Source of the DNA: a virus
Reading direction: 5' to 3' (one strand)
DNA length: 64,000 nucleotides
Virus record (IMG/VR): IMGVR_UViG_3300030419_003648
Span: 1 to 64,000 of that record
The notes below the pieces were generated by a model. It saw nothing but the letters and a program-made list of their open reading frames with translations. It had not been told where the DNA came from and did not search any database. The position numbers and the translations under genes were made by a program. Below are positions 10,790 to 58,041 of the stretch, piece by piece; position 1 is the stretch's first letter; each line of letters opens with the position of its first letter.

Positions 10790-10814
10790 TTTTTTTGATT
10801 TTAGGAGTATTGAT

Positions 10815-33638: not shown

Positions 33639-34069
33639 TCTGCGGCTATAAACATTTTGAAACTAAGCTGCTATACGAGTCTGCTAAAGCTCCAACTAAA
33701 GGCCATCTTGATGATGCTGGCTGGGACTTATACGCTTTTGAAACAATCTCTATACCTGCTGGAGAGACTGTTCTTGTTTCTACTGGTATTGCTATTGCTA
33801 TTCCTAAAGGTTATGTAGCTTTAATATGGGATAGATCTTCAATGGGTGTGAAGGGTGTACATAGACATGCAGGAGTTATAGACTCCGGTTATAGAGGCGA
33901 AGTAAAAGTTTGTCTGCATAATACGACAAAAGAACCGTATCATATAGAAAGAGACGATAGAATCGCACAAATGTTAATACAAGAAGCCCCAAACTTTAAA
34001 CAACATGTAGTTCAAGAACTAGACTCAACAAACAGGGGCGATGGAGGGTTTGGTTCAACAGGTAAGTAG
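33635..34069 (+). CDS. dut: dUTPase (dUTP diphosphatase)
   Basis: A 144-residue trimeric-type dUTPase that removes dUTP and supplies dUMP. The five motifs are DAGWDLYA (I), DRSSMG (II, usually PRSSxG), GVIDSGYRGEV (III), RDDRIAQMLI (IV) and RGDGGFGSTG (V). The catalytic Asp in motif III is present. Part of the nucleotide operon, overlapping the preceding gene by 4 bp. Confidence 0.95.
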   Translation: MICGYKHFETKLLYESAKAPTKGHLDDAGWDLYAFETISIPAGETVLVSTGIAIAIPKGYVALIWDRSSMGVKGVHRHAGVIDSGYRGEVKVCLHNTTKEPYHIERDDRIAQMLIQEAPNFKQHVVQELDSTNRGDGGFGSTGK

Positions 34070-34070
34070 T

Positions 34071-34757
34071 ATGGCTAGAAAAAAGAACAACGAGTCGGGA
34101 TATACTACTAGACGGAAGGCTTTAAAGCCTAAAACGGAAAACCAAACAGAATATATTGACATCATAAATAATAATGATGTTACTTTTTGTACAGGCCCAG
34201 CAGGTACTGGCAAAACAGCAGTCGCAGTGGGTCTAGCCTGTGACTATCTACTAGATAAAAGAGTAGAAAAAATTGTAGTAACTAGACCTGTAATAGAATC
34301 TGGAAGAGGTTTGGGTTTCTTACCCGGAACCTTTGAAGAAAAGATACACCCATATCTTGTGCCTGTATTAGAAGAGATGCAATACAGACTAAATAGTAAT
34401 AGGGTGCAGTCTTACAGGGAAGAAGGCAAAATAGAAGTTGTCCCTCTTGAATATATGAGAGGGCGAAATTTTCATAATTGCTTTATGATATTAGATGAAG
34501 CTCAGAACGCTACGTTTGAACAGTTAAAGATGTTTATTACGCGGATAGGCTGGGATTCAAAAGCTGTCATAAATGGTGATATTGATCAAACAGACCTTGT
34601 TAAAAAAGACAGAGGTGGTCTTGAAGAATTTCTTGACCGGCTTGAGCTTGTAGAAGGTGTGGGTATTGCAGAATTGACAGAAGATGATATAATTAGAAAT
34701 AAGATTATTTCTAAAATCTTAGACGCTCTTTACGACGACACGGTGAAATACTCCTAA
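34071..34757 (+). CDS. phoH: PhoH-like ATPase
   Basis: A 228-residue PhoH-family P-loop protein. ATG 34071 is preceded by AGGTAAG. Walker A GPAGTGKT is at residues 42-49 and Walker B is FMILDEAQN; the PhoH signature GRGLGFLPGTFEEKIHPY and GDIDQTDL follow. PhoH is common in phages; an RNA-helicase or nuclease-linked role has been proposed but its function is not settled. The stop overlaps the FmdB-like gene. Confidence 0.93.
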   Translation: MARKKNNESGYTTRRKALKPKTENQTEYIDIINNNDVTFCTGPAGTGKTAVAVGLACDYLLDKRVEKIVVTRPVIESGRGLGFLPGTFEEKIHPYLVPVLEEMQYRLNSNRVQSYREEGKIEVVPLEYMRGRNFHNCFMILDEAQNATFEQLKMFITRIGWDSKAVINGDIDQTDLVKKDRGGLEEFLDRLELVEGVGIAELTEDDIIRNKIISKILDALYDDTVKYS

Positions 34758-36515: not shown

Positions 36516-36897
36516 TGCGGCTCAATTCATAGCCGAAATGGTTTCTATAAGAAAAGCTGAAGTCGAGAACGTAGGAAGACCAGCTTACGCTTTATGGAAT
36601 ACCAAAAAGTGGAAAAACTATTTTAAAAGCCAAGTCACTATGGCTTATAAACTTCTGAAAAAGTATAGCGACAAAGCTATCATCAATGCGCTTAATACTT
36701 ACAAATGTCGAAGGGTCTATTCTTTGCGCGTTGCATTTCTTGAACCTGTTATAAAACAGGAACAGAAGAAGTTAGATAATATCAATAGCCTAGAAATAAA
36801 AGAAAAAGAATACAAAGACTCTACCAAGTCTGCTCCAGCAAAACCTTTTGGTAAGCAAGGAAGGTTTTCAAGATTAAGGAATTTAGAAGATGAATAA
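36472..36897 (+). CDS. Hypothetical helical basic protein
   Basis: A 141-residue Lys-rich helical protein with an N-terminal TGQECNAAQFIAEMV block. The C-terminal part is charged, with KPFGKQGRFSRLR. It overlaps both neighbours and lies directly upstream of the RecA gene, so a replication-linked role is plausible but unproven. Confidence 0.7.
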   Translation: MDKNYKHQTTGQECNAAQFIAEMVSIRKAEVENVGRPAYALWNTKKWKNYFKSQVTMAYKLLKKYSDKAIINALNTYKCRRVYSLRVAFLEPVIKQEQKKLDNINSLEIKEKEYKDSTKSAPAKPFGKQGRFSRLRNLEDE

Positions 36898-37957
36898 TGC
36901 AGTATTAAAAAACATAAGCAAGAAGTATGGAAACATTTTGGTTAATGGCGCTGAGGTTTTTGAAGAACTGCGCGACATGCAAGTCATTCCGGTAAGTCCG
37001 TCACTAGACTATGCTCTAGGAGGGGGTTTCCGTGAGGGAACTTGGGTTCAAATGATTGGCGATCCAAAGTCTGGTAAAACTACAACAGCGCTTCAATTTG
37101 CTGCGAACTGTCAAAAAAAGGAATATGGTGAAAGACCGATATTCTATGTCAATGTTGAAGGCAGATTGAGTACAAAAAACTTTGAAGGTGTTCATGGTTT
37201 AGATGCTAGTAAAATTACGGTTGTTCAATCTGAAGGAGAGCCTCTAAGTGCTGAGCAATATTTAGGAGCTGTAGAAAAATTAGTCAAAGCTCATCCAAAA
37301 TGTGTTGTAATTATTGATTCAATATCTAGCTTGATAGCTCAAAAAGATTTAGACGAAGAAGTAAGAGGCGACTATAGGCCGGGAGTTCCTAAGATACTTT
37401 CTAATTTCTGTAAGAAGATGAGCAGTGTAGTTCCTAAGCAAAGGGCTGTAGTGATAATGATCACTCACTTTATTGCTAACACTGGAGGAATGGGCAAGAA
37501 GAAAGTTGCAGATGGAGGCGTAAAGGTTCGCTATCAAGCAGACACTATTTTAGAGATTGCTTGGATTCAAGCGTGGAAAGAAAAAACTGACGGCAGGCAG
37601 ATCGGACAGGCTTTGCATTGGAAAGTTGTCACTTCTGCTTTGGGTGGCTTTGTAGGCGCTGAGGCTATTGGCTGGCTTCGTTATGGAATTGGTATTGATT
37701 ACAAGCAAGAACTTTTTGACCAAGCAAATGACTTTGATTTAATCTCTGCTGCTGGAGCTTGGTATACTTGCGACTTTTTACTGGACAATACAAAGCCCAT
37801 CAAAAAACTTTTGGAGGCAGAAGGTATAGACCCAGAAGACGAAGAGAAGCTTGCAAAGTTCGTTAAGTTTCAAGGACAACAACGACTAAAAGACTTCTTA
37901 GACCAAAACGATCTTTGGCCTGCATTACAAGAGTCTTTGAAGGAGATGTTGTTTTGA
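36890..37957 (+). CDS. recA: RecA-like recombinase (UvsX-type)
   Basis: A 355-residue RecA-family ATPase. Walker A GDPKSGKTT is at residues 57-65, Walker B is VVIIDSISS, and RAVVIMITHFIANTGG aligns with the switch and L1/L2 loops. The Walker A differs from bacterial RecA (GPESSGKTT), as in phage UvsX proteins. It should form filaments on ssDNA for strand exchange and repair. It overlaps both the preceding gene and the following nuclease-like gene. Confidence 0.92.
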   Translation: MNNAVLKNISKKYGNILVNGAEVFEELRDMQVIPVSPSLDYALGGGFREGTWVQMIGDPKSGKTTTALQFAANCQKKEYGERPIFYVNVEGRLSTKNFEGVHGLDASKITVVQSEGEPLSAEQYLGAVEKLVKAHPKCVVIIDSISSLIAQKDLDEEVRGDYRPGVPKILSNFCKKMSSVVPKQRAVVIMITHFIANTGGMGKKKVADGGVKVRYQADTILEIAWIQAWKEKTDGRQIGQALHWKVVTSALGGFVGAEAIGWLRYGIGIDYKQELFDQANDFDLISAAGAWYTCDFLLDNTKPIKKLLEAEGIDPEDEEKLAKFVKFQGQQRLKDFLDQNDLWPALQESLKEMLF

Positions 37958-43180: not shown

Positions 43181-44174
43181 TCTTGGAACATTAGAGTTCT
43201 GTCAGCAAAAATACTTTTTGCAGTATAACCTTTCGTTCAAAGATAAGACCAATCCAAAAGCCTTAATGGGTACGATTACCCATAAGGTGATGCAGACTCT
43301 TGGAGACAAGAAAGTTGCAATGAACAAAGGTCTTGACATCGTAGAAGACGAAGAAACAGGAAGGAACCTAACGCTAGAAGAATGTGACGATCTTGAACTT
43401 CTCAACAACATAGCGTTTGACTATTACACTAACGCCTTTCCAGAAGTAAAGATTGGTGACAAAGAAAGAAGGCAATGTCTTCGCTGGGCTGAAAAAGCGA
43501 TAGCTTTTAAAGACGGAATGCTAGACCCTAGAAACCAAGATGTATTTGCTACTGAACTCTTTTTTGACATCGAGATAAAGAAGCCTTGGGCTAAATACAA
43601 ATATGAGTTTGAAGATCAAACAATCGAAGGCTATTTATCTATTAAGGGAACTGTTGACCTTATATTAGATCAGGGCAATGGCTTCTTTGAAATACTTGAT
43701 TATAAAACTGGAAGACGTTTGGATTGGGCTACCGGAGAAGAAAAGACTTACGAAAAGCTACAAAAAGATAAACAGCTTTTGCTTTATTATTACGCTCTGA
43801 AGAATATGTATCCTGACAAAGAATTTTCAGTAAGTATATATTATATCAACGACGGTGGATTATTTTCTATGGTCTTTGACGAAGAAGACTATGAGGATGC
43901 GGAAGAGATACTTCGTAAAAAATTTGAACAAATAAGAAGTATACAACAACCAAGACTACTATCAAATGAACATACTCACTGGAAGTGTCAAAAGCTATGC
44001 CTGTTTAGCAGTGAGTATGAGGATAGCGGAAAAAGTATATGTCAGCATATACGAGACGAAGTTAAAGAAAAGGGTGTAGTCAAAGTAGTTGAAGAATATG
44101 GCAAAATTGACAAGATCGCCACGTATGGAGATGGCGGCGGAAGATTGGCAGACGATAGCGATAGCAAAAAATGA
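43152..44174 (+). CDS. RecB/Cas4-family nuclease with Cys cluster
   Basis: A 340-residue PD-(D/E)XK nuclease like the Cas4/RecB group. GTITHKVMQTLGD is motif I, and VDLILDQGNGFFEILDYKTGR the catalytic D...ExK. QLLLYYYAL is motif QxxxY. A Cys near the start (FCQQKYF) and C-terminal KCQKLCLFS with a later CQH can form the Fe-S cluster seen in Cas4 and AddB. It probably processes DNA ends with RecA. No CRISPR genes are near. Confidence 0.85.
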   Translation: MIVCYHRSSSLGTLEFCQQKYFLQYNLSFKDKTNPKALMGTITHKVMQTLGDKKVAMNKGLDIVEDEETGRNLTLEECDDLELLNNIAFDYYTNAFPEVKIGDKERRQCLRWAEKAIAFKDGMLDPRNQDVFATELFFDIEIKKPWAKYKYEFEDQTIEGYLSIKGTVDLILDQGNGFFEILDYKTGRRLDWATGEEKTYEKLQKDKQLLLYYYALKNMYPDKEFSVSIYYINDGGLFSMVFDEEDYEDAEEILRKKFEQIRSIQQPRLLSNEHTHWKCQKLCLFSSEYEDSGKSICQHIRDEVKEKGVVKVVEEYGKIDKIATYGDGGGRLADDSDSKK

Positions 44175-46093
44175 ATTGGACACCTTTACACCTGCATAGC
44201 CATTACAGCCTCCTAGACGGCCTCTCAAAGCCTTCTCAGATAGCTTCTCGGTGTGCGAACCTTGGTTTTGAATCTTGCGCTCTAACGGATCACGGGACGA
44301 TCTCTGGCGCTGTCGCATTTTCTAAAGCAATGAGGCAAAAGAATATCAAGCCAATACTCGGTTGTGAGTTCTACCTAAGCCAGCAAGATTGCACGGTTAA
44401 GTCCGAAGAAAATAGAAAACTGAGTCATCTCTGTGTCATTGCAAAGAATAAGAAAGGTTGGGGTCAGCTTATACAGGCGACTTCAAGAAGTAACGATGAA
44501 GAAAATTTCTATTATAAGCCTCGTCTTGATCTTGATACTCTAGGTCAATACGCAGATGGAAACTTGATAGCTTTTAGCGGACATCTTGGAAGTGATTTAG
44601 CAAATGTGATTTTCACTGATATTAAATCTGGTTATCAGGCTACAACTTTAGATGAGTTCAAAAGGTATACTCATGCTGACTGGCCTGAGAGAGTTTCCAA
44701 GTTAGCTCATAGGTATCGAGATATATTTGGTAAAGATAATTTCTTCCTTGAAGTGCAATCAATAGACCAAGAGAATTCCATTGCAGCTAAGATGGTCGCT
44801 GAAGGAATGAGATATGTAGCGAATAAATACGACTTCAGAACTGTAGCTACAGCTGACTCTCACTACCCTGAACAAAAAGATGCAGGAGATCAACTTCTAC
44901 TTCTCTGCTCAGCGATGAGAACAACCCTTAGAGGTGTGAAAAAGAAAATCCAAGCCAATGAAGATGTGGCATTTTCTGGCTTTATGAAGTCAACAAATTT
45001 TCATATTCCAACATTAGAAGAAATACAATCAGTCAATTCGTCAAAAGAGATTGATACTTCTATGGAAATAGCGAGTATGTGCGAAGACTACGACATACTC
45101 GGCCAACCTATGCTCCCAGAATTTGAATGTCCTGAAAATAAATCAGAAGAAGCGCATCTAAGACAGTTGTGCCGTGATGGTTGGCGCGATAAGCTGTCTG
45201 GAATTTTGACAAAAGATCAAAAGAACGAATACACCGAAAGAATTAAAAAAGAACTTGATGTCATAAGCAGTGCTAAACTGTCTGGCTACTTCCTTATTGT
45301 CAGAGATATAGTTAACAGTGTCAGGTCTAGAAATCATATACCCGGTCCGGGAAGAGGTTCTGCTGCTGGATGCTTAGTTTCTTATCTGATTGGGATTACA
45401 CAATTAGACCCTATCAGATACGGTTTAATCTTTGAACGCTTTTATAACGCAGGAAGAAATACAGGTGGGCATGTATCGCTTCCAGATATTGATATTGACG
45501 TTCCAGCTACTAAACGAGACGAAACTATAGACTATATCAGAAGTAAATATGGTAATGATCGTGTTGGTCAAATGGTCACGTTTGGAAGGCTTCAAGGTAG
45601 AAGCGCGTTAAAAGAAGTTCTTAGAATGAATGACGCTTGTAGTTATGACGAAATGAACGCTATCACTAAAAGCCTTCCTCACGAACACGAAGTGTCTGAT
45701 CAATTAGCTGAAATGGACGAACCGTCTGTAATTCAATGGACGTTAATGAATCAGCCGGATTCACTGAAAGATTATTGCCGATTAAATGACGATGGTAATC
45801 TTGAAGGCGACTACGCCAAATTATTTGCGCAGGCCATGCGTATAGAAGGCACATTTAAATCACAAGGAAAACACGCCGCTGGAGTCGTGATCTCTTCCCA
45901 TAAACTAGATGAAGTTTGTCCAATGGTTAGAGATAAGAAAGGCGCTGAGAAGATAGCAGGGCTTGAAATGAACGACCTAGAAGCAATGGGACATGTAAAG
46001 TTTGACATTTTAGGAATTTCCCTAATGGACAAAATCATGGGGATCAGAGATAAATTGGAGGAGGACGATGACCAAGAAAACTTGGAAAGATAA
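44171..46093 (+). CDS. dnaE: DNA polymerase III alpha, N-terminal piece (PHP and palm)
   Basis: A 640-residue fragment of a C-family polymerase. The PHP domain has HLHSHYS (7-13), TDHG (39-42), CEF (65-67), H86 and a DSH later, an apparently complete metal set. The palm has PDIDID with D441 and D443, and the third catalytic Asp612 in KFDILG. The protein ends soon after, where intact DnaE continues into fingers, so all three catalytic Asp are here and the rest is encoded at 46947. Activity requires pairing with that piece. Confidence 0.93.
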   Translation: MNWTPLHLHSHYSLLDGLSKPSQIASRCANLGFESCALTDHGTISGAVAFSKAMRQKNIKPILGCEFYLSQQDCTVKSEENRKLSHLCVIAKNKKGWGQLIQATSRSNDEENFYYKPRLDLDTLGQYADGNLIAFSGHLGSDLANVIFTDIKSGYQATTLDEFKRYTHADWPERVSKLAHRYRDIFGKDNFFLEVQSIDQENSIAAKMVAEGMRYVANKYDFRTVATADSHYPEQKDAGDQLLLLCSAMRTTLRGVKKKIQANEDVAFSGFMKSTNFHIPTLEEIQSVNSSKEIDTSMEIASMCEDYDILGQPMLPEFECPENKSEEAHLRQLCRDGWRDKLSGILTKDQKNEYTERIKKELDVISSAKLSGYFLIVRDIVNSVRSRNHIPGPGRGSAAGCLVSYLIGITQLDPIRYGLIFERFYNAGRNTGGHVSLPDIDIDVPATKRDETIDYIRSKYGNDRVGQMVTFGRLQGRSALKEVLRMNDACSYDEMNAITKSLPHEHEVSDQLAEMDEPSVIQWTLMNQPDSLKDYCRLNDDGNLEGDYAKLFAQAMRIEGTFKSQGKHAAGVVISSHKLDEVCPMVRDKKGAEKIAGLEMNDLEAMGHVKFDILGISLMDKIMGIRDKLEEDDDQENLER

Positions 46094-46286
46094 AATTCGG
46101 GACAAAATTCAAAACGGAAGATACGAAGAATACAAAGGTCTTTCCATTTGCAAAATAAACGATTTCTACCAACCAATGAACCGGAAGGTAAGATACCAAG
46201 TCCACTCGTATCGTTTCAGCGGACTTTTTGAAGATATTGAAGAAGCATTGGATAAATTTTTTGAGATTAAGAGGAAAATAAGATGA
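46068..46286 (+). CDS. Small basic protein inside the split polymerase operon, 72 aa
   Basis: A 72-residue basic protein, starting after GGAGG with good spacing and overlapping the end of the polymerase N-piece by 26 bp. Tyr/Lys/Arg-rich, mixed strand-helix. Possibly a stabilising partner for the split polymerase; that is a guess from position. Confidence 0.65.
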   Translation: MTKKTWKDKIRDKIQNGRYEEYKGLSICKINDFYQPMNRKVRYQVHSYRFSGLFEDIEEALDKFFEIKRKIR

Positions 46287-46963
46287 ATTACAAAGACATT
46301 ATTGTTTTTGACTTTGAAACAGGTTCTAGGAATCCGCACAAAACACAACCAGTCCAGATCGCAGCTGTAGCGATTCACGGAAGAAAGCTGACCATTCAGC
46401 CTGACGGAGAGTTTAACAGTCTTATCAGGCCAGTGCTGGACGATGAAGAGGCCATAAAGCTAGGATTAGACCCTATTGAAGACGAAGCCTTAGCTGTGAA
46501 TGGAAAGACCAGAGAAGAGCTTGCCAAAGCTCCTCAACCAAAAGTGGTTTGGGATAAGTTTGCAAATTTTGTAAACAGGTACAATTTCAAAAAAACACCT
46601 TATTATGCCCCAATCGCTGCTGGATACAACATAATCGGCTTCGATCTGCCGATAGTACAAAGGATGTGTGAAAAATATGGGCCAGTTGACAAGAAAACTG
46701 GTCAGCAAACACTCTTCAATAAAATTCACAAAGTTGATATGCTTGATATTGTCTGGATGTGGATGGAGAATAATGCCGATGTTAAATCTCTGAGCATGGA
46801 TTCAATGCGTGATTTACTAGGTATGTCTAAAGAAAATGCGCATGACGCTTTGCAGGACGTTAAGGATACAGCTTTGATGATGATATCCTTCATGAAATTC
46901 CACCGAAAAATTGCACCAAAAGTAAAATTTGAGAAAGCCTTTGCAGATGGCCGAGACTTTTAA
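46283..46963 (+). CDS. DnaQ-like 3'-5' exonuclease (DEDDh)
   Basis: A 226-residue exonuclease. Exo I is FDFETGS, Exo II is the GYNIIGFDLP region, and Exo III is NAHDALQDVKDT with the His of DEDDh. It is expected to proofread for the DnaE-type polymerase, like the epsilon subunit. It sits between the two polymerase pieces and overlaps both neighbours (4 and 17 bp). Confidence 0.92.
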   Translation: MNYKDIIVFDFETGSRNPHKTQPVQIAAVAIHGRKLTIQPDGEFNSLIRPVLDDEEAIKLGLDPIEDEALAVNGKTREELAKAPQPKVVWDKFANFVNRYNFKKTPYYAPIAAGYNIIGFDLPIVQRMCEKYGPVDKKTGQQTLFNKIHKVDMLDIVWMWMENNADVKSLSMDSMRDLLGMSKENAHDALQDVKDTALMMISFMKFHRKIAPKVKFEKAFADGRDF

Positions 46964-48539
46964 TTTAATTGAAGATGATAGCTTTGCCGACGAAGCTACT
47001 TGGGACTTAATATGCTCAGGAAAGACTAAAGGTGTTTTCCAACTAGAAAGCAACTTGGGTAAGTCTTGGGCAAAAAGAGTCAAACCAAGAAACATTGAAG
47101 AACTAGCAGCCCTGCTGTCAATAATAAGACCCGGAACATTGAAGGCTATACAAGATGGCAAATCAATGACCCAAAGGTTTGTTGATAGGAAAAATGGGTC
47201 TGAAAAGATTACTTACCCACACCCATCTTTAGAGCCTATACTCAAAACAACCCAAGGGGTTCTTGTGTATCAAGAGCAGTCTATGCAGATTGCTCAAATG
47301 CTTGCTGGTTTTGATCTTCAAGAGGCAGATAACCTTCGTAAAGCAATCGGTAAGAAAAAAGCCGATCTAATGGCGAAAGTCAAAAAGGCATTTCTAGCTG
47401 GAGCTATTAAAGAGGGGATTGTTGATAAGGACACCGCTGAGGAAATCTTCAGTTGGATTGAGAAGTCCAGTCGTTACGCATTTAATAAGTCTCATGCGGT
47501 TTCGTATGCAGTATGTGCTTATTGGAGCGCTTTTTGTAAAGCTCATCACCAACTAGAATTTTACTGCAATTATTTGATCTACTCTTCAGGCAAGCCAGAC
47601 CCTCATCAAGAAGTCAGAGAGCTTGTCAACGATGCAAAGAATAATGAAATCTATATCAGCCCTCCATCAATAAAGAGCTTAAATGTTCAGACTGACATAA
47701 TTGATGGCCGTATACATTTCGGCATGTCTAATGTTAAGTCTATTGGCGTAAAGCATATAGAAAAATTCAAATCAATAATTAAAGAAGTAGAAGAGCAGAT
47801 AAACAAACCATTCATTGAATGGTCTTGGTATGATTTTTTGGTCTTGGCTTCGCAAAAGGTCAATAGGCCGGTGGTGATCGCTTTATGTTCGATTGGATTC
47901 TTTTCGCATTTGCCAGAGACCAGAACGGAAATGTTAGATAGGTTCCACACTTGGGGTCAACTTACTAAAAAGGAACAAGAGTGGGCGGTCGAAAACCATT
48001 CCAAATTTACCTGCATTGAAAAGATATTGAGCAAAATGGTTCCTGTCAAGAAAGAGGGCGGAGCTACATTCAATAAAAAGCGCTCTGACATGCTGCGCGA
48101 CCTTTTGAACGAAATGCAGAATCCATCAAGTCCAATGTCTGACTCTAGACGGTGGGTTATACAAGAAGAAGAAAGGTACTTAGGGGTAGCTTTAACATAC
48201 TCTAGAATTGAAGCCTGCAACACGAACCTAGCAAATACCACGATCAAAGAGTTTTTAGATGGTAAGCGAGGCGACATTAAAATGGCTGTTACCATTTCCG
48301 ATGTCAAAAAATGGGTAACTAAAAACGGTAAGATGAAAGGTTCTGAAATGGCATTTCTTTGTGTAGAAGATACCACTGGAACTTTAGACACGGTAACAGT
48401 GTTTTCTGACCAGTGGCAAGAGAACAAAGGTATACTGTATACTGGTAACAATGTTATAATTTCTGGCACATCATCGAAAGACAAAAGACGACAAATTGAC
48501 GATGGTTTCATTGTCAACAGCGTTATAGAATTAAGTTGA
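46947..48539 (+). CDS. dnaE: DNA polymerase III alpha, C-terminal piece (fingers and tail)
   Basis: A 530-residue protein from ATG 46947. It continues where the 44171 protein stops: KGVFQLES, LLSIIRPGTL, RFVDRKNGSEKITYP, GVLVYQEQSMQIAQMLAGF, ADNLRKAIGKKK, and RYAFNKSHAVSYAVCAY align with DnaE fingers. A helix-hairpin-helix region and an OB-like C-terminus (VAVTISDVKKWVTKNGKMKGSEMAF-type) follow. No intein signature is seen at the break. Overlaps the exonuclease by 17 bp. Confidence 0.92.
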   Translation: MAETFNLIEDDSFADEATWDLICSGKTKGVFQLESNLGKSWAKRVKPRNIEELAALLSIIRPGTLKAIQDGKSMTQRFVDRKNGSEKITYPHPSLEPILKTTQGVLVYQEQSMQIAQMLAGFDLQEADNLRKAIGKKKADLMAKVKKAFLAGAIKEGIVDKDTAEEIFSWIEKSSRYAFNKSHAVSYAVCAYWSAFCKAHHQLEFYCNYLIYSSGKPDPHQEVRELVNDAKNNEIYISPPSIKSLNVQTDIIDGRIHFGMSNVKSIGVKHIEKFKSIIKEVEEQINKPFIEWSWYDFLVLASQKVNRPVVIALCSIGFFSHLPETRTEMLDRFHTWGQLTKKEQEWAVENHSKFTCIEKILSKMVPVKKEGGATFNKKRSDMLRDLLNEMQNPSSPMSDSRRWVIQEEERYLGVALTYSRIEACNTNLANTTIKEFLDGKRGDIKMAVTISDVKKWVTKNGKMKGSEMAFLCVEDTTGTLDTVTVFSDQWQENKGILYTGNNVIISGTSSKDKRRQIDDGFIVNSVIELS

Positions 48540-48596: not shown

Positions 48597-48953
48597 ATGA
48601 ATACAATTTCTAATTATTGCCGCTTTATAGGACGGTTAGTTCAAGATCCAAAGACTGTAAAATTTGAAAATACGGAGCTTTGCACTTTTACGCTAGCTGT
48701 CACTGAGTACAGAAGAGAAAAAGATGGCAACAAAAAAAAGAATGTCAATTTTTTTGACTTTGAAGCATGGGACTCTGGCGGTTCAACTATTCAAAAACAC
48801 TGTAGTAAAGGCGACATAATTGATTTGGTGGCATCTGCCAGAAACAATTCTTGGACAGATAAGGATGGTAAGAAAAGATTCTCAACAAAGTTCAGAGTCA
48901 AAGAATTCAAACTCTTTGGAAATCAGCAAAAGCAAAAAACTGAAAAAAGCTGA
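48597..48953 (+). CDS. ssb: Single-stranded DNA-binding protein (second)
   Basis: A 118-residue OB-fold SSB. CRFIGRLVQDPKTVKFENTELCTFTLAVTEYRREKDG and NFFDFEAWDSGGSTIQKHC are the family blocks. The C-terminus is Lys/Gln-rich and lacks the DDDxxF tip found in the protein at 6526, so it may not recruit the same partners. It follows a sigma70-like promoter. A sigma-like gene overlaps its end. Confidence 0.92.
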   Translation: MNTISNYCRFIGRLVQDPKTVKFENTELCTFTLAVTEYRREKDGNKKKNVNFFDFEAWDSGGSTIQKHCSKGDIIDLVASARNNSWTDKDGKKRFSTKFRVKEFKLFGNQQKQKTEKS

Positions 48954-49443
48954 AAAAGAAAAACTGAAAACACAAAAAGAGCTTGAAGAAGAACTAGTTC
49001 ATGAACACTATGGGTTAGTTGTGTCTCAGGCTCTTTCTTTTTTCTATAGCTCATACTTTGATGACTATATTCAAGCCGGTCTAATAGGACTACTCAAGGC
49101 TATAAGAAACTACAATAGCGACAAATCAAAGTTCAGCACCTTTGCAACAGTTTGCATACGCAACGAAATGGTGACTTTTGATAGAAAAATAAAGAAGAAA
49201 AGCTTCAGCAACATAGTCTTTGACACAGAGAACATTGAAATCTTTGTGAAAGATAAAAACAAAGAACCTTTACCAAAAGACTGGCTTCCTAATTCACTTA
49301 CAGAAGAAGACAGGTTTATAATAGAATTAAAACTACAAAATTATACTAACAAAGAAATATGTAGTTTTTTGAGCTGCTCAAAGTATGTACTTTCTAACAA
49401 GATAAAAAATATTTCAGCAAAAGTAAAAGAGCATAACAAATGA
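48865..49443 (+). CDS. Sigma-70 family sigma factor (second)
   Basis: A sigma-like protein with uncertain start. ATG 48865 gives 192 residues; TTG 48916 is another option. The convincing part begins near KAEKEKLKTQKEL. Region 2 is YFDDYIQAGLIGLLKAIRNYNSDKSKFSTFATVCIRNEM; the C-terminal LTEEDRFIIELKLQNYTNKEICSFLSCSKYVLSNKIKNI resembles region 4. It would direct polymerase to phage promoters. It overlaps the SSB gene in another frame and the next glycosyltransferase by 4 bp. Confidence 0.82.
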   Translation: MVRKDSQQSSESKNSNSLEISKSKKLKKAEKEKLKTQKELEEELVHEHYGLVVSQALSFFYSSYFDDYIQAGLIGLLKAIRNYNSDKSKFSTFATVCIRNEMVTFDRKIKKKSFSNIVFDTENIEIFVKDKNKEPLPKDWLPNSLTEEDRFIIELKLQNYTNKEICSFLSCSKYVLSNKIKNISAKVKEHNK

Positions 49444-51074
49444 GAAAGAAGAGAATACTTTTTTGCGGAGAGGCTACATATCTAAACACTGGATATGCTA
49501 CCTATGGTAGAGAAGTTCTCAAGAGGCTTCACTCTACTGGCAAGTATGAGATAGCAGAATTTGCTAGTTACGGCTCAGAAAAAGATCCTAGATGCTCTAC
49601 CATTCCGTGGACTTTCTATGGCAACATGCCAGACCCTAACGACAAGGCTCAAATGCAAGAGTATGAGTCTATACCAACAAATCAATTTGGTGAGTGGAGA
49701 TTTGAAGCTGTCTTGTTAGATTTTCTTCCTGATATTGTTTTTGATATCAGGGACTTTTGGATGTTCGACTACCAAAATAGATCTCCATTTAGAAATTATT
49801 TTAATTGGACTATTATGCCAACTGTTGATGCGGCTCCACAAAATGAGCAATGGTTGGACACTTTTATAAGTGCCGATGCTGTATTCAATTATTCAGATTG
49901 GGGTTGGGACGTAATAAACAAAGAGTCTAATGGAAAAATAAACTGCTTAGGATCAGCACCTCCTTCTGCCGACTCTGCTTATCAACCAGTAGAAGACAAA
50001 GCCGAACACAAAGAATCTATGGGGTTCACAAAAGATACCAAGATAATTGGTACTGTGATGAGAAACCAAAGAAGAAAGCTGTTTCCAGACTTGTTTGAAG
50101 CGTTTAGAAAATTTCTAGACAATTCTGGAAGAACAGATGTCTTGCTTTATTGTCATACAAGCTATCCTGATTTGGGATGGGATATACCAAAACTGCTTTT
50201 GAAATATAAGCTTTCGTCAAAAGTTTTATTCACTTACGTTTGCAACAACTGTGGACATACTTTTCCGTCATTCTTTTCAGACGCAAGAAGAAAATGCCCA
50301 AAATGTGGACAATTTGCAGCTGGCCTTTCAAGCGTACAAAAGGGAGCGTCTTACGAATATTTATCAAGCATAATGAATTTATTTGACTTGTACGTTCAAT
50401 ATGCAAACAGTGAAGGGTTCGGTCTTCCTCAAGTCGAAGCTGCGGCTTGTGGAGTTCCCGTAATGAGCGTTGACTACTCAGCCATGAGCAGCGTTGTAAG
50501 AAAGTTAGATGGCTTTCCAGTAAAACCTAAAGCCCTGTACAACGAAGTTGAAACTGGTTGCAATAGAGCCGTTCCAGATAATGACCATGCAGCTGAACAA
50601 ATGCAAAAGTTCTTCGATATGACGGATGCAGAGCAGCAAACATTGTCAAAAAATACTAGATTGAACTTTGAAAAATATTACCAGTGGGACAAGACTGCTA
50701 AAAAATGGGAAGACTATTTTGATTCAGTAGAAATCAGACCTATTGAACAAACATGGAAATCTCCCCCAAGAATACACCAACCCTCAAACACAATACCTCA
50801 AAACCTTTCACCAGCACAATTTGCTAAGTGGCTTATAACAGATGTCTTAGGCGAGCCAGAAAGATTGAATACATATTTTGAGTCTAGGCTGTTAAGAGAC
50901 TTAAATTATGGAATGTACATTCAGGGTACAGGAGAAATGTATTTGAATGAGGATTCTTATAAGTTCATAAAGCCCGTATATGAAAAGTTTGAAAAGCAAG
51001 AAGCTTACAACATGATGGTAGGATTATGCAACCGACGCAATCAATGGGAAGCAGCTAGGAGTAAACTTCAATGA
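49440..51074 (+). CDS. GT4-type glycosyltransferase with inserted zinc ribbon
   Basis: A 544-residue GT-B glycosyltransferase. FCGEATYLNTGYATYGREVLKRL opens it, and the donor site is NSEGFGLPQVEAAACGVPVMSVDYS with the EX7E motif. Between the domains sits a four-Cys zinc ribbon, C268-x2-C271-x14-C286-x2-C289, interrupting the usual fold. The C-terminal 120 residues are extra. It opens the main glycan cluster, overlapping the sigma gene by 4 bp. Confidence 0.88.
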   Translation: MRKKRILFCGEATYLNTGYATYGREVLKRLHSTGKYEIAEFASYGSEKDPRCSTIPWTFYGNMPDPNDKAQMQEYESIPTNQFGEWRFEAVLLDFLPDIVFDIRDFWMFDYQNRSPFRNYFNWTIMPTVDAAPQNEQWLDTFISADAVFNYSDWGWDVINKESNGKINCLGSAPPSADSAYQPVEDKAEHKESMGFTKDTKIIGTVMRNQRRKLFPDLFEAFRKFLDNSGRTDVLLYCHTSYPDLGWDIPKLLLKYKLSSKVLFTYVCNNCGHTFPSFFSDARRKCPKCGQFAAGLSSVQKGASYEYLSSIMNLFDLYVQYANSEGFGLPQVEAAACGVPVMSVDYSAMSSVVRKLDGFPVKPKALYNEVETGCNRAVPDNDHAAEQMQKFFDMTDAEQQTLSKNTRLNFEKYYQWDKTAKKWEDYFDSVEIRPIEQTWKSPPRIHQPSNTIPQNLSPAQFAKWLITDVLGEPERLNTYFESRLLRDLNYGMYIQGTGEMYLNEDSYKFIKPVYEKFEKQEAYNMMVGLCNRRNQWEAARSKLQ

Positions 51075-52192
51075 AAGTCTTATACATAGGCTGTTACAGA
51101 GATGGTACTGGTTGGGGTCAAGCGGCTACTGACTACATATTGTCATTAGATAGTATTGGCGTACAAGTAGTACCTCGTCCAGTAAAATTGAATTCTAATC
51201 TAATTGAACTTCACCCTAGAATAGCTCAGCTCGAAAATAGAGATTCTAGTGGTTGTGATATTTGCATTCAGCATGTTCTTCCTCATATGATGGATCATAA
51301 TCCTAGATTCAAAAAGAACATAGCTTTATACGCTACAGAAACAAGCAACTTCAAAAGATCTGGCTGGTCTAGAAGAATCAATTTCATGGATGAGGCTTGG
51401 GTTATCAACAACCAAATGGTTGAAGCCTCAAGAAACAGCGGAGTAGAAATACCCATAAAGGTTGTCCCGCACGCAACTAACTTTGGAAAATTTGATACTA
51501 ATTACAACAAAATAGAATTTCTAGACAACGACACTTTCAAATTTTATTTTATTGGTGAGCTAAACGAAAGAAAAAACCTAAGAGCATTTTTGAAAGCTTT
51601 TCACTCTGAGTTTAGAAAATCTGACAATGTTTCAATAGTCATCAAAACAAGCAAGCACGGAGTATCACCAGAACAGTGCGCGTCTGAAGTTAGAGACATA
51701 TGCAACGAAGTTAAGGTTGGTTTAAAACTATACCCTAATCTTAACGATTACAAAGAAGATTTAATAATCACAGACAGACTAAGCGAAGTAGACATGATGA
51801 GGCTTCATGCAAGTTGTGACTGTTTTGTGATGCCAAGTTACGGAGAGGCTTGGTCTATACCTTGTTTTGACGCTATGGGATTTGGAAAAACCCCAATATG
51901 CACAAACATTGGAGGTATGTCTGATTTTATTGGTAACGCAGGATTTCTAATAGAAGGAAGACAAGAGCCTGTTTATGGCATGTTAAATACGTTTCCATAC
52001 TTATTTACGGCAGAAGAAGAATGGTGTTCTATAGACATCAGTGAATTAAAGAAAGTCATGCGGCATGTGTACGAGAATAGAGAATCTCTAGAGGAGATGC
52101 GAAACTTGGGAGCTAAAAACGCTTATGACTATTCATACCCTAAGATTGGAGCATTGATGAAGAAGTTAATAGAGGAGAGCAATGATGATTAG
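51071..52192 (+). CDS. GT4-like glycosyltransferase
   Basis: A 373-residue GT-B enzyme. RDGTGWGQAATDYILSL starts the acceptor domain; FYFIGELNERKNLRAFLKAF starts the donor domain, and PSYGEAWSIPCFDAMGFGKTPIC holds the donor motif, with Asp replacing the second Glu of EX7E. ATGA overlap with the preceding gene. Adds a sugar to a growing glycan; specificity unknown. Confidence 0.85.
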   Translation: MKVLYIGCYRDGTGWGQAATDYILSLDSIGVQVVPRPVKLNSNLIELHPRIAQLENRDSSGCDICIQHVLPHMMDHNPRFKKNIALYATETSNFKRSGWSRRINFMDEAWVINNQMVEASRNSGVEIPIKVVPHATNFGKFDTNYNKIEFLDNDTFKFYFIGELNERKNLRAFLKAFHSEFRKSDNVSIVIKTSKHGVSPEQCASEVRDICNEVKVGLKLYPNLNDYKEDLIITDRLSEVDMMRLHASCDCFVMPSYGEAWSIPCFDAMGFGKTPICTNIGGMSDFIGNAGFLIEGRQEPVYGMLNTFPYLFTAEEEWCSIDISELKKVMRHVYENRESLEEMRNLGAKNAYDYSYPKIGALMKKLIEESNDD

Positions 52193-53201
52193 TCCTGTTA
52201 CTTCCATCACAAGAGCTGCTACCAGAAGGATAAAAGAGCCTCTTAACATACTTACATTTCCCACGCACGAGAGATATGAAAGTATGCTCGCTAAATGCGG
52301 ACATAACTTCTATGCGTATAGGGCGCAGGGTATAAAAGATTGGAACACTAACTACGCTGATATACCTGATAATTATTTCTTATTAGATCCAGATTTAGGC
52401 GAAGAGCAGATACCAGAACATGTGGACTTCGACCTTGTTTTGTCTCAAAATAAATTTGGGCAATTTCAAATAGCTAAAAAATTAGCTGGAATGTTACATC
52501 TACCCCTTGTAAGCCTTGAACACACACTTCCAATCCCGACTTGGGGCGAGGATGTGTTAGAATCCACAAGACAAATGAGAGGTCATCTAAATCTATTCAT
52601 ATCTAGATACAGCATAGACGCTTGGGGATGGCAAGAAGGCAAAGATACATTGGTGATAACACACGGTGTTGATACCGATTTGTTTAAACCAAATGATAAA
52701 GTAGAAAGAGAAGACCATATCCTGTCTGTGGTGAACGACTGGATTAATAGAGATTGGTGTTGTGGTTTTGGTATTTGGCAAAACGTCATAAAGGGGCTTC
52801 CCTTTAAGGTGGTAGGCGACACTCCGGGCTTGTCAGAGCCAGCGTCTTCTACGGAAGAGCTTGTCGCCTCCTACCAAAACAGCAGAATTTTTCTCAACAC
52901 TTCTACTATTTCTCCGGTTCCAACAGCGCTGCTAGAGGCCATGTCTTGTGGTTGTGCTATTGTGACTACTGCTACATGTATGATTCCTGAAATAGTGGAA
53001 AACGGAGTAAATGGTTTTATCAGTAATGACATGGATGAACTCAAAGAGTATTTAGTCATGCTTCTAAACGATGAAGATCTTGCTGAAAAAATGGGAAAAG
53101 CAGCGAGAAAGACTATAGTAGACAGGTTTTCTGTAGAACGATTTGCTTCAAAGTGGGACTTTATACTAAACACTGCTTCTAAAAAGGTTTTTGTGGGATG
53201 A
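52182..53201 (+). CDS. GT4-like glycosyltransferase
   Basis: A 339-residue GT-B glycosyltransferase. LNILTFPTHERYESMLAKCGH begins the fold; the donor region is PVPTALLEAMSCGCAIVTTATCMIPEIVENGVNGFI, strongly typical of GT4 although the first Glu of EX7E is not seen. Overlaps its neighbours by 11 and 4 bp. Confidence 0.85.
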   Translation: MMISPVTSITRAATRRIKEPLNILTFPTHERYESMLAKCGHNFYAYRAQGIKDWNTNYADIPDNYFLLDPDLGEEQIPEHVDFDLVLSQNKFGQFQIAKKLAGMLHLPLVSLEHTLPIPTWGEDVLESTRQMRGHLNLFISRYSIDAWGWQEGKDTLVITHGVDTDLFKPNDKVEREDHILSVVNDWINRDWCCGFGIWQNVIKGLPFKVVGDTPGLSEPASSTEELVASYQNSRIFLNTSTISPVPTALLEAMSCGCAIVTTATCMIPEIVENGVNGFISNDMDELKEYLVMLLNDEDLAEKMGKAARKTIVDRFSVERFASKWDFILNTASKKVFVG

Positions 53202-53662
53202 AAGTAAGAATAACAGTAGGCGAAGAAACCAAACTAAATGGGTATCTGAATATAGACCCTATTACTAAGTTTGACGACGTTGCTGTAGATATTAGAAATA
53301 TCGACGAAGTCGTAGAAAATGCTTCTTGTAAAGAGCTTATATCCGATCATATATTAGGTTTTTTAGAAAAAGAGGAAGCGATTAGAGTGCTAAAGGGGTA
53401 TATGAAAAAAATACGCCATAATGGTACTATAATAGTGTCGGAAATAGACTCTTACGAAGTGGCAAGGTCTTTCTACAGGAAAGAAATAGACTCTGACTTT
53501 TTTAACAAGGCTGTGCATGGAAACTTTTCTCATCCTTGGGATGTGAAAATGAGCAGTTACACTTTAGAAGAATTAGCTGATATTCTTGCTTCCGGCGGAT
53601 TTAAAATAATTAAAAAAAGATTAAACGGTATTAGACTAACAATAGAGGCCCAAAGACCATGA
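53198..53662 (+). CDS. SAM-dependent methyltransferase-like protein
   Basis: A 154-residue protein with LNGYLNIDPITKFDDVAVDIRNIDEV, a class I methyltransferase pattern seen in glycan clusters, and IRHNGTIIVSEID plus LASGGFKIIKKR as later strands. The glycine-rich SAM loop is not obvious, so it may be a truncated form. Possible role: methylating a sugar. Placed between glycosyltransferases with ATGA overlaps. Confidence 0.72.
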   Translation: MKVRITVGEETKLNGYLNIDPITKFDDVAVDIRNIDEVVENASCKELISDHILGFLEKEEAIRVLKGYMKKIRHNGTIIVSEIDSYEVARSFYRKEIDSDFFNKAVHGNFSHPWDVKMSSYTLEELADILASGGFKIIKKRLNGIRLTIEAQRP

Positions 53663-54468
53663 CTCAAGCATCCGATATAGCTTCATTTGAGCAAGGACAA
53701 GTCGAAGAAGAAAAGCAGGTACTACACACGACCTGTAAAAACTGCGTCTTTTCAGTTGTAGAAGGCAAAACTCAAACTGGATGCAAATTGAAAAGGATAG
53801 AAGCCTACAAAAAGCTAGGCACTACTGTAATCGAAGCAGAAGATTTAGAAGAAAATGAATTTTTTGTTATCGAGTCTTGGTGTAATGGTTACAGAGAGAA
53901 AGAATGGCTCCTCACTATTCCAGAAGATACAGACGATTTAGAGGCTGTGAGAAAAGAGATCCTTCCAAGACTTGGATTTTTTGTTTTAGTAAATGAAGAA
54001 AATTCTGATGTCAAAAAGACGATAGAGTCGGTAATAAAAGCAAAAGCAAGCTACGTAGTCGTCGTTAATAATAGCAAAAAGGACTATGTTGACCTGATTG
54101 AAGAATGTCAAAGCTACGTAGAAAATTGTGATTTGACGCTTAAAGTCATGAATCTAATTGAAGAAGTCAATGAATACGAAGCTATAGACGAAGCCTTTGG
54201 TAATGCCCAAAGCGGTTATTACTCAGTGATTGTTTCTGGCGAAGAAGCTAGAGAAGATATTTTGGAACGACTAGATGTAGCCATCAACGAAAATCTAACT
54301 CGTGTTGGATATGTAAAACCATACGATGGCGTGAATGGAATGACTGTTCTTTCGCTAATGCACAAACATTTAAACGGGAACGTAAATGGCTTCTTAGAAG
54401 AAAAAGTCATAGGAGCTGCAAAAATGGACAATTCGTCTAACCTTGTACAAAGCTGGGAAACCATCTAA
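53659..54468 (+). CDS. Cys-rich N-terminus with GT-A-like domain, unassigned
   Basis: A 269-residue acidic protein. Residues 25-80 hold TCKNCVF, GCKLKR and WCNGYR, four or five Cys that could bind zinc or an Fe-S cluster. The remainder (FFVLVNEENSDVKKTIESVIKAKASYVVVVNNSK) resembles the nucleotide-binding half of a GT2 enzyme, but no DxD is certain. Surrounded by glycosyltransferases. Role unknown. Confidence 0.65.
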   Translation: MTQASDIASFEQGQVEEEKQVLHTTCKNCVFSVVEGKTQTGCKLKRIEAYKKLGTTVIEAEDLEENEFFVIESWCNGYREKEWLLTIPEDTDDLEAVRKEILPRLGFFVLVNEENSDVKKTIESVIKAKASYVVVVNNSKKDYVDLIEECQSYVENCDLTLKVMNLIEEVNEYEAIDEAFGNAQSGYYSVIVSGEEAREDILERLDVAINENLTRVGYVKPYDGVNGMTVLSLMHKHLNGNVNGFLEEKVIGAAKMDNSSNLVQSWETI

Positions 54469-55232
54469 TGCTGCCAAAAGTCACTATTCTTATAGCGAAC
54501 TATAACGACGAAGAATATATAGACAATGCAATAGAAAGTGCGGTTAATCAAGATTATCCGGGTTCTATGACTGTATGTATAGTGGATGATGGATCAAAAG
54601 ATGATTCTTGGGAAATCATAAGCTCTTATTTTGATGACAAAGATGGTGATGTTCTTACAAAAAATAACTCTGGAAGATTTGGACAGACAAATCTTGTAGC
54701 TATAAAAAATGTAAATTCTGGCCCAAGCGAAGCAAGAAATGTAGGGATTGAATATACTTTAGAAGACACTGATATATATGCAATACTAGATTCTGATGAT
54801 GAAATGTACGAAAACAAAATCAGCTCTTGTGTTACTGTATTTGAGCAGGGTAATGGTCTAGTAGGTGTCGTGTATGGAGATTATGACACGTTACATGTTG
54901 AATCAGGAAAGATTATAAGAGAATTTAAAGAGCCTTACAGTAGAAAAAGGTTGGTACAAGAGTGCATTGTTCATAGCGGGTCTCTCATTTCTAAAGAAGC
55001 TTTGTTGTCAGTAAAAGAAGAAACTGGATTTTATGACAAAACAATGAGAACCTGCGAAGACTATGATCTTTGGATGAGAATAAGCGAAAAATATATAATT
55101 GCTCACGTACCTAAATCTTTAACAAAAGTAAGAGTAACTGGTGATAACTCTTCTTTTATTGTTAACCAAGACATTTGGCAAAAAAACTGGTTAAGAGTAA
55201 TGGAAAAAATGCAACAAAGAATAAATGAGTAG
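54468..55232 (+). CDS. GT2 family glycosyltransferase
   Basis: A 254-residue GT-A inverting glycosyltransferase. VTILIANYNDEEYIDNAIESAVNQDYPG starts the fold, IVDDGSKDDSWEII follows, GPSEARNVGIE is the ribose-binding region, and LDSDDEMYENK carries the metal-binding DxD. C-terminal EDYDLWMRISEKY fits an acceptor-binding helix. Its first base is shared with the preceding stop, and it overlaps the next gene by 8 bp. Confidence 0.92.
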   Translation: MLPKVTILIANYNDEEYIDNAIESAVNQDYPGSMTVCIVDDGSKDDSWEIISSYFDDKDGDVLTKNNSGRFGQTNLVAIKNVNSGPSEARNVGIEYTLEDTDIYAILDSDDEMYENKISSCVTVFEQGNGLVGVVYGDYDTLHVESGKIIREFKEPYSRKRLVQECIVHSGSLISKEALLSVKEETGFYDKTMRTCEDYDLWMRISEKYIIAHVPKSLTKVRVTGDNSSFIVNQDIWQKNWLRVMEKMQQRINE

Positions 55233-55929
55233 ATTTACCTCCGCCATAAAGAAAAATGGTGCTGGTCAATACAACGGTGAAAAACTAAGTATTGTAATAC
55301 CAGCGGCAGGAATGGGTCACAGGATGAAATCCTATGGCCCTAAATGCTTATTGGCGGCAAATAGTAGAGACACTATTCTTCAGAAGATAATAAAGAACGC
55401 AAAAAGAGAATATCCAAACTCAGACATAGTAGTAGTGACTGGGTTTGAATCAGAAAAAGTTATAAAGTCACTTCCACAAGAAATAAGAATTGTAGAAAAC
55501 TCAAACTACGAAACAACTAACACCGTAGAAAGCCTAAGAATAGGAATTAACGCCTGCGCGACAAGAAATGTCCTAATCATATACGGCGATCTTATCTTTA
55601 ATACATATTCTATACGCGACTTAACAAACGATGGTTCATCCATAGTTTATGATAAAAAGCAACAATTCAAGAGCGATGAAATTGGCGTAACAATAGTAGA
55701 TAATTGTGCAACCAGATTTGCTTACGGTTTAGAAAACAAATGGTCTCAAATAGCTTTTTTTGAAGGCGAAGACTTTGACTTATTAAAACAATTTTGTTCT
55801 GACAAAAGAAAAAGTAAACTTTATCCATTTGAAATATTTAATTACATGATCAACAAGGGTTGCAGCATAAAAGCCATAGCACCAAAAGGGATGATCATAA
55901 GAGAAATAGATTCTTTAAAGGATTTATAA
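55225..55929 (+). CDS. Sugar nucleotidyltransferase
   Basis: A 234-residue NTP_transferase. LSIVIPAAGMGHRMKSYGPKCLL is the NTP-binding GxGxR...PK motif, and LIIYGDLIF carries a metal-binding Asp. Such enzymes activate sugar-1-phosphates or phosphocholine-type groups. Residues 1-20 are a Lys/Gly-rich extension. The donor sugar is not identifiable. TAATG junction with a 49-codon gene. Confidence 0.85.
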   Translation: MSRFTSAIKKNGAGQYNGEKLSIVIPAAGMGHRMKSYGPKCLLAANSRDTILQKIIKNAKREYPNSDIVVVTGFESEKVIKSLPQEIRIVENSNYETTNTVESLRIGINACATRNVLIIYGDLIFNTYSIRDLTNDGSSIVYDKKQQFKSDEIGVTIVDNCATRFAYGLENKWSQIAFFEGEDFDLLKQFCSDKRKSKLYPFEIFNYMINKGCSIKAIAPKGMIIREIDSLKDL

Positions 55930-56078
55930 TGGGAAACTATTGGGGCTGGATTAAAAATAACTACAAGTGGTATGCTTGGAAGTATGTAAAAAATAAGGTC
56001 AAAGTTAAACTTGGACCATTTTATACTATAGAAGAAGCTCAAGAAGCGGCAGAAAAATATGAAGATTCTAATAAGTAG
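55929..56078 (+). CDS. Small Trp/Tyr-rich protein, 49 aa
   Basis: ATG 55929 overlaps the preceding TAA. The product MGNYWGWIKNNYKWYAWKYV... is rich in aromatic and Lys residues followed by a short helix with EEAQEAAEKYED. Aromatic/basic peptides may bind carbohydrate or membranes, but there is no direct evidence. Overlaps the next gene by 20 bp. Confidence 0.5.
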   Translation: MGNYWGWIKNNYKWYAWKYVKNKVKVKLGPFYTIEEAQEAAEKYEDSNK

Positions 56079-57105
56079 CGATGGACCTCATGCTCATTAT
56101 TATATAAGAATGGCTTGGGCTAGAGTTTTTAGTTCAATGGGTCATGACGTTGAATTATGGAGCAAGGATAGCATCCCAGCATATGATGTTTTTGATGAAT
56201 ATGAACCAGACATATTCATGGGACAGACCTACAACATCACTGAACCTTTAATTAATTGTATTAAAGAAAGACCTCATATGAAGGTTGTGATGAGAGGTTC
56301 TGACTGGGGAGACTTCCAAAAAAATATTAACACGCAAGAGTATCCTATTTTAGTCGCTTCGGAAGAAGAGAAGAAAATGATGGAACGGCTTAAGGAAGAA
56401 ACGGGAAAGCCTGACTTCATACATAATCATTACACTCAAAACTGGATTGATGTAACTCATAACAAATGGAAAGATATAGGAATACGTCCAGTATCATTAA
56501 TACATGCTGGCGATATATTTGAGTACAGTCTACAGCCAAAATCTAACTTGTTTAGCTGTGACGTTGGTTTTGTTGGTGGTTATTGGCCTTATAAAGCAAA
56601 GAGTTTAGACAAGTTTTTAATTCCTCTTTGTCACCCTGTAGGAAAATACAAGGTAAAGATTTTTGGAAATTCCGATTGGCCTGTAGTCCAATATCTAGGA
56701 ACAATAAAATCTAAAAATGTTTCTTCGTTTTTTCAGTCTGCAACTGTATGCCCAAACGTCAGTGAACCTCATTCTCAGGACTTTGGTTATGATATTATCG
56801 AGCGTCCTTTCAAAATTCTCATGTCGGGAGGTTTTTGCATATCAGATTATGTAGAGTCTATGGCAAATGATGTTTTTACAAACGAGGAAATTATCTTCGC
56901 AAAAACACCAGAAGAGTTTGAGACTCTAATTGAATATTATGTTAATAATCCTGACGAGAGAATGAAACATATAGAAGCAGGCTATAATTCTGTCATGTCT
57001 AAACACACCTACTACCATAGGATGGCAAAAATGTTTGAAGAATTAGAAATGCCAGAAGAAGCTGAGAAGTGCATGGAAACTCTCAAGAATTACGTTGGAG
57101 AATAA
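56059..57105 (+). CDS. GT-B glycosyltransferase, CgeB-like
   Basis: A 348-residue protein. MKILISSDGPHAHYYIRMAWARVFSSMGHDVELW opens a GT-B fold. CDVGFVGGYWPYK and FFQSATVCPNVSEPHSQDFGYDIIERPFKILMSGGFCISDYVE match the CgeB/Glyco_trans_1_2 donor site. Likely adds a sugar in the cluster. Overlaps the small aromatic gene by 20 bp. Confidence 0.82.
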   Translation: MKILISSDGPHAHYYIRMAWARVFSSMGHDVELWSKDSIPAYDVFDEYEPDIFMGQTYNITEPLINCIKERPHMKVVMRGSDWGDFQKNINTQEYPILVASEEEKKMMERLKEETGKPDFIHNHYTQNWIDVTHNKWKDIGIRPVSLIHAGDIFEYSLQPKSNLFSCDVGFVGGYWPYKAKSLDKFLIPLCHPVGKYKVKIFGNSDWPVVQYLGTIKSKNVSSFFQSATVCPNVSEPHSQDFGYDIIERPFKILMSGGFCISDYVESMANDVFTNEEIIFAKTPEEFETLIEYYVNNPDERMKHIEAGYNSVMSKHTYYHRMAKMFEELEMPEEAEKCMETLKNYVGE

Positions 57106-57106
57106 T

Positions 57107-58039: not shown

Positions 58040-58041
58040 CT

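What the first reader, a model, noticed from the sequence alone, without database searches (positions are those of the whole stretch)
44171..48539. DNA polymerase III alpha is split into two genes, with a proofreading exonuclease between them
The N-terminal piece (640 residues) ends just after the third catalytic Asp612. The C-terminal piece (530 residues) begins just before KGVFQLES, so the break lies between palm and fingers. A 72-codon gene and a DnaQ-like exonuclease occupy the gap, all overlapping and thus co-translated. The known cyanobacterial DnaE split uses a split intein at a different position; no intein motifs are visible here. Alpha would have to assemble from two chains, and the exonuclease may help join them.
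Basis: partly seen in the sequence, partly recalled or inferred. Interest (0 to 1): 0.75.

Follow-up and report, generated by a model that had tools for sequence, protein, structure and literature searches.

The report
Phage replicase split into two genes
A large group of uncultured, mostly aquatic phages makes its main DNA-copying enzyme as two separate proteins, with the gene for a likely error-correcting nuclease between them and no sign of any mechanism that joins the halves, so the enzyme most likely works as a two-piece machine.

Summary
At 44171-48539 a DnaE-type DNA polymerase III alpha is encoded as two genes: an N piece (PHP, thumb, palm, all three catalytic Asp) and a C piece (fingers, HhH, OB). 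Between them lie a 72-codon ORF and a DEDDh exonuclease. The pieces map to Salmonella DnaE 9-565 and 593-1057 without overlap, so the cut is in the palm-fingers linker.

It is not an assembly error or a pseudogene. In 184 distinct IMG/VR loci with both pieces, all are split with the exonuclease between and none is fused. Catalytic residues are invariant in the 159 loci scored, and dN/dS is below 0.17. No intein, intron or conserved frameshift links the halves. Two relatives carry about 6 kb of unrelated genes between N and exonuclease-C. The best explanation is non-covalent assembly of alpha from two chains, with the exonuclease as proofreader; a bridging role for it is untested.

Split C-family polymerases are known: cyanobacterial split inteins, a minimal jumbo-phage version (Iyer 2021), and isolate phage phiT1, cut at the same site. 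I found no report of this clade or this arrangement. I rate it a new variant of a known kind.

The parts
44171..46093 (+). Alpha N piece, 640 aa: PHP, thumb, palm; catalytic D439, D441, D612; ends in a helix just after the palm strand
   Evidence: Pfam PHP and DNA_pol3_alpha; phrog_405 42-620; Salmonella DnaE 9-565; AF2 pLDDT 90.4 and Foldseek hits to PolIII alpha
46068..46286 (+). ORF72, small ORF of unknown function, overlaps the N end by 26 nt, with a GGAGGAGG stretch upstream of its ATG; conserved only in part of the clade
   Evidence: No Pfam or PHROG match; homologues in relatives; sequence
46283..46963 (+). DEDDh (DnaQ-superfamily) exonuclease, 226 aa; D10, E12, D121, H187, D192; conserved C-terminal tail K-[VI]-[KR]-F-x-x-[AS]-F
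   Evidence: RNase_T; phrog_192 DNA polymerase exonuclease subunit; active-site residues 159/159; profile matches PolC exonuclease, ExoI and others in the PDB
46947..48539 (+). Alpha C piece, 530 aa from the ATG at 46947 (536 aa from the TTG at 46929): fingers, HhH, OB; lacks the tau-binding tail
   Evidence: DNA_pol3_finger and HHH_6; phrog_405 623-1078; Salmonella DnaE 593-1057; AF2 pLDDT 86.4 and Foldseek hits to PolIII alpha
48597..48953 (+). SSB-like gene directly downstream (replication context)
   Evidence: Pfam SSB

Best explanation
This is the C-family (DnaE-type) DNA polymerase of a phage clade, probably its replicase. Alpha is made as two stand-alone chains cut in the linker between palm and fingers. 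The N chain carries PHP, thumb and palm with all three metal-binding Asp; the C chain carries the fingers, HhH and OB fold. The chains most likely reassemble non-covalently through the native palm-fingers interface into one active alpha. The DEDDh exonuclease encoded between them acts as a separate proofreading (epsilon-like) subunit. Shown: the split, domain coverage, conservation, purifying selection, and the absence of an intein, intron or conserved frameshift. Inferred: chain association, polymerase activity, and proofreading by this exonuclease.
For: Non-overlapping, nearly complete coverage of alpha. 184 of 184 distinct loci split with the exonuclease between, none fused. Asp triad and DEDDh invariant in 159 of 159. 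dN/dS below 0.17 for N, exonuclease and C. N tails are only 12-40 aa after KFDxLG, so no intein half fits; inteins are plain elsewhere in the clade. No intron in Rfam. Reading-frame offsets vary. N lies about 6 kb from exonuclease-C in L024 and L020. N and C trees both recover the clade with SH-aLRT 100 and similar subclades. Each piece models confidently alone and matches PolIII alpha structures. No PolA or PolB found in the record or eight large relatives. The PHP metal site is degraded in 57 of 159 while the exonuclease is intact in all, which fits the exonuclease as proofreader.
Against: No complex was modelled and no biochemistry exists. The record may be incomplete, so another polymerase cannot be excluded. 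No sliding clamp was found in the record, so how the enzyme is held on DNA is unknown.
Confidence: 0.78

Rival explanations
1. The exonuclease (with or without ORF72) is a structural bridge: alpha forms only as an obligate N-exonuclease-C complex in which the nuclease holds palm and fingers together.
For: The exonuclease is always encoded between N and C and has a conserved C-terminal tail that could be a docking peptide.
Against: Isolate phage phiT1 has the same-site split with no exonuclease between the halves. Synteny alone does not show contact, and the native palm-fingers interface already offers a binding surface.
Confidence: 0.15
2. The halves are joined after all, by a split intein, trans-spliced intron or programmed frameshift.
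For: Other breaks in phage and cyanobacterial dnaE are joined by inteins, and L108, L141 and L055 of this clade carry intein sequences inside the C piece.
Against: No room for an intein half at the break; no Rfam intron; frame offsets vary and up to 6 kb lies between N and exonuclease-C.
Confidence: 0.03
3. Assembly error, sequencing frameshift or decaying pseudogene.
For: The record is a metagenome contig.
Against: Same arrangement in 184 distinct loci from many samples, strong purifying selection, invariant active sites.
Confidence: 0.01
4. N and C do not form one alpha; each serves another role or pairs with host alpha.
For: No sliding clamp was found in the window's record, so host replisome parts may be used.
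Against: In C-family polymerases the active site needs palm and fingers together (established knowledge); both pieces keep complementary conserved motifs and share one history.
Confidence: 0.03

Closest known systems
Rossellomorea phage phiT1 (PV767480) gp20/gp18, both annotated 'DNA polymerase III subunit alpha'
   Same: DnaE cut in the same palm-fingers linker (Salmonella residues 574/576), with a small ORF between the halves
   Different: No exonuclease between; about 34% identical in N; outside the clade in the free trees, although a sister position is not rejected
Minimal split Pol III alpha of group 2.2 jumbo phages (Iyer et al. 2021, PMC7824862)
   Same: Phage C-family alpha made as two proteins thought to reconstitute one enzyme
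   Different: There the core is minimal, without the other Pol III domains, the genes are distant, and the phages also have PolB; here alpha is nearly complete with PHP, the genes are clustered, and no PolB was found
Cyanobacterial split DnaE
   Same: DnaE in two genes
   Different: Joined by a split intein at a place inside the fingers region (from general knowledge); no intein at this break
Fractured genes with split inteins and an endonuclease gene between (Dassa et al. 2009; paper not held, cited)
   Same: Phage gene in two pieces with other genes between; L108 and L141/L142 of this clade look like this kind inside the C piece
   Different: At the N/C break there is no intein, and the constant gene between is an exonuclease
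Bacterial PolC and the Pol III alpha-epsilon pair
   Same: Polymerase and DEDDh exonuclease encoded or acting together
   Different: In PolC the exonuclease is a domain inside the PHP of one chain (general knowledge); here it is a separate gene and alpha is of DnaE type in two chains

Membership tests
C-family DNA polymerase, DnaE type | PHP, palm, fingers and HhH domains | tested here: met
   Met only by N and C together
C-family DNA polymerase, DnaE type | Three catalytic Asp in the palm | tested here: met
   D439, D441, D612 in 159 of 159 loci
C-family DNA polymerase, DnaE type | Single polypeptide | tested here: not met
   Split in 184 of 184 loci; membership claimed for the N+C pair, not for one chain
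C-family DNA polymerase, DnaE type | C-terminal tau-binding domain | tested here: not met
   C aligns only to Salmonella 593-1057 of 1160; such a tail is not expected in all DnaE
C-family DNA polymerase, DnaE type | Clamp-binding motif | not tested
   No systematic motif search was run; no clamp family hit in the record
Split-intein DnaE (cyanobacterial type) | Intein halves at the break | tested here: not met
   N tails 12-40 aa, short C leaders, no intein blocks
Minimal split Pol III alpha of jumbo phages (Iyer 2021) | Minimal core without PHP | tested here: not met
   PHP present
Minimal split Pol III alpha of jumbo phages (Iyer 2021) | Accompanies a PolB | tested here: not met
   No DNA_pol_B match in the record or eight large relatives; records may be incomplete
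Fractured gene (Dassa type) | Split intein plus homing endonuclease between the pieces | tested here: not met
   The window gap holds ORF72 and a DEDDh exonuclease; in some relatives endonuclease-like genes sit in the gaps only as extra inserts
DnaQ/epsilon proofreading exonuclease | DEDDh active site | tested here: met
   All five residues in 159 of 159
DnaQ/epsilon proofreading exonuclease | Binds alpha | not testable with these tools
   Only a conserved C-terminal tail was seen

The most novel reading that the evidence does not exclude
A three-chain replicase core in which the proofreading exonuclease is an integral subunit docked at the palm-fingers break, so that alpha forms only as N-exonuclease-C and polymerisation depends structurally on the proofreader.
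Probability: 0.15. Interest if true: 0.85.

Novelty: new variant of a known kind. Interest (0 to 1): 0.6.

Why it matters
If N and C do reassemble, a C-family polymerase has been kept over a large and diverse phage clade as two polypeptides cut through its catalytic region without protein splicing. That makes the palm-fingers interface of DnaE directly testable by complementation, offers a natural split-polymerase system, and pairs a dedicated DEDDh exonuclease with a polymerase whose own PHP nuclease site is decaying in part of the clade.

Tried and rejected
Assembly error or pseudogene: rejected. Intein at the break: rejected. Group I/II intron: no Rfam match beyond one sub-threshold chance hit on the other strand. 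Programmed frameshift or readthrough: frames vary among relatives and up to 6 kb is inserted. Bacterial relatives: a genome-contig scan with N found none. Isolate relatives: best tblastn identity about 35%; the exonuclease has only distant isolate hits, in Bacteroides phages. phiT1 relatives in IMG/VR: none found. Paper searches found no description of this clade, but most subscription papers and all bioRxiv-only preprints are outside the library, so a published description may have been missed.

Full report
What is there. The window is part of a 99,882-base IMG/VR virus record. Within a replication cluster (helicase, primase, dNMP kinase, nuclease) lie N 44171-46093, ORF72 46068-46286, a DEDDh exonuclease 46283-46963, C 46947-48539, and then an SSB at 48597. 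N carries PHP and palm, C carries fingers and HhH. PHROG 405, a 1190-position phage DNA polymerase, is covered 42-620 by N and 623-1078 by C. Against Salmonella DnaE, N aligns to 9-565 and C to 593-1057. The cut therefore falls in the linker after the palm strand that carries the third catalytic Asp (D612) and before the fingers segment leading to KGVFQLES. The tau-binding tail is missing.

Is it real. Scans of IMG/VR with N, C and alignments of N, exonuclease and C gave 184 distinct loci with both pieces. All are split, all have the exonuclease between, and none is fused (earlier tally). The scans keep only the best 80 loci per alignment query, so this samples the clade rather than counting it. 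Members are as distant as about 40% identity in the C piece and sit on contigs of up to 243,821 bases. In the 159 loci scored, the Asp triad and the DEDDh residues are invariant. Pairwise dN/dS, where it could be computed, is below 0.17 on N, exonuclease and C. The one single-ORF hit, L058, is a distant DnaE outside the clade.

How the halves could be joined. N tails end 12-40 aa after the KFDxLG motif and C leaders are short, so no intein half fits. Where inteins exist in the clade they are obvious: L108 has intein halves flanking a Vsr-like endonuclease inside the C piece, L141/L142 has the C piece broken at the same profile position around a similar insert, and L055 has a contiguous mini-intein at the same place. 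Rfam finds no intron. Frame offsets from N to exonuclease and from exonuclease to C differ among relatives. In the contigs of L024 and L020, N lies about 6 kb from exonuclease-C, with genes that read as metabolic enzymes between. Two separate chains is the only reading I found that fits all members.

Mechanism. N (AF2 pLDDT 90.4, pTM 0.88) and C (86.4, 0.77) each model confidently alone and match PolIII alpha structures. All catalytic Asps are on N and the fingers on C, so neither chain should polymerise alone (established knowledge of C-family enzymes). I infer non-covalent reassembly through the native palm-fingers interface; no complex could be modelled here. The exonuclease is the likely proofreader: it is universal, while the PHP metal site is intact in 94 of 159 loci and degraded (4 or fewer of 8 ligands) in 57. 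Its conserved C-terminal tail K-[VI]-[KR]-F-x-x-[AS]-F is a candidate docking peptide, by inspection only. A bridging role remains possible but is not shown. ORF72 is limited to part of the clade, and elsewhere different small ORFs stand in its place or none does, so it is unlikely to be generally needed for assembly.

Other polymerases. No PolA or PolB was found in the record or in eight large relatives, and no beta clamp in the record. The records may be incomplete.

Evolution. Trees of N and of C each recover the clade with SH-aLRT 100 and similar subclades, which fits inheritance of the pieces together. Rossellomorea phage phiT1, an isolate, has DnaE cut at the same linker with a 49-aa ORF between and no exonuclease. 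It falls outside the clade in the free trees, but a sister position is not rejected (AU p 0.51 and 0.18), so one or two origins remain open. Phage DnaE breaks exist at other places too: Bacillus phages Jayan (410+76+634 aa) and KLEB27-3 (HNH gene between).

Known or new. Iyer et al. 2021 (PMC7824862) described a split minimal Pol III alpha in group 2.2 jumbo phages, beside a PolB and with distant genes. The present system has a nearly complete alpha, genes that are usually clustered, an exonuclease between, and no PolB found. I found no paper on this clade. Verdict: a real, conserved, intein-free split polymerase and a new variant of a known kind, with function inferred.

Noticed in passing
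L108:10000-12847; L141/L142:8786-11778: The C piece is itself broken by what looks like a split intein with a Vsr-like endonuclease gene between the halves (L108: YAFNK|SHAVSY), giving a three-gene alpha.
   Followed up: partly
L055:5893-7947: A contiguous mini-intein sits in the C piece at the same place as the L108 split intein.
   Followed up: partly
Gaps N-exonuclease and exonuclease-C in L030, L034, L023, L092, L036, L108, L110, L048, and the contigs of L024 and L020: The gaps act as insertion spots: uracil-DNA glycosylase, TylF-like methyltransferase, endonuclease VII-like and other HNH-like genes, a long repeat protein, and about 6 kb of genes that read as metabolic enzymes.
   Followed up: partly
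N-terminus of the C piece in L020, L023, L024, L030, L034, L040, L045, L047, L048, L093, L097, L142, L187: A short CGC motif (F-x-C-G-C) opens the C piece in many branches but is missing in the window's own group.
   Followed up: no
Contig of L142 (G004:C1:53291-54163 and 199351-200223): Two distinct copies of the N-piece polymerase domain on one 206 kb contig.
   Followed up: no
L251:4385-5943: The C piece is broken into two overlapping frames near profile position 270, either a frameshift or a further split.
   Followed up: no
N pieces of L035, L101, L055 and about 57 of 159 scored loci: The PHP metal site is degraded, often with about 100 aa of PHP missing, while the exonuclease stays intact.
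   Followed up: yes
window 6526-6891 and 48597-48953; 48820-49443: Two SSB-like genes, the first by reading only, and a sigma-70 family gene whose ORF overlaps the second.
   Followed up: partly
window 8627-11642, 29899-34757, 36890-37957, 49440-64000: T4-like accessory genes (RIIA, RIIB, ribonucleotide reductase, PhoH, UvsX-like) followed by a long run of genes that read as glycosyltransferases and sugar enzymes.
   Followed up: partly
L283 (Bacillus phage Jayan) and L286 (Bacillus phage KLEB27-3): DnaE is broken at other places in isolate phages: before the palm with a 76-aa ORF between, and in the fingers with an HNH gene between.
   Followed up: partly
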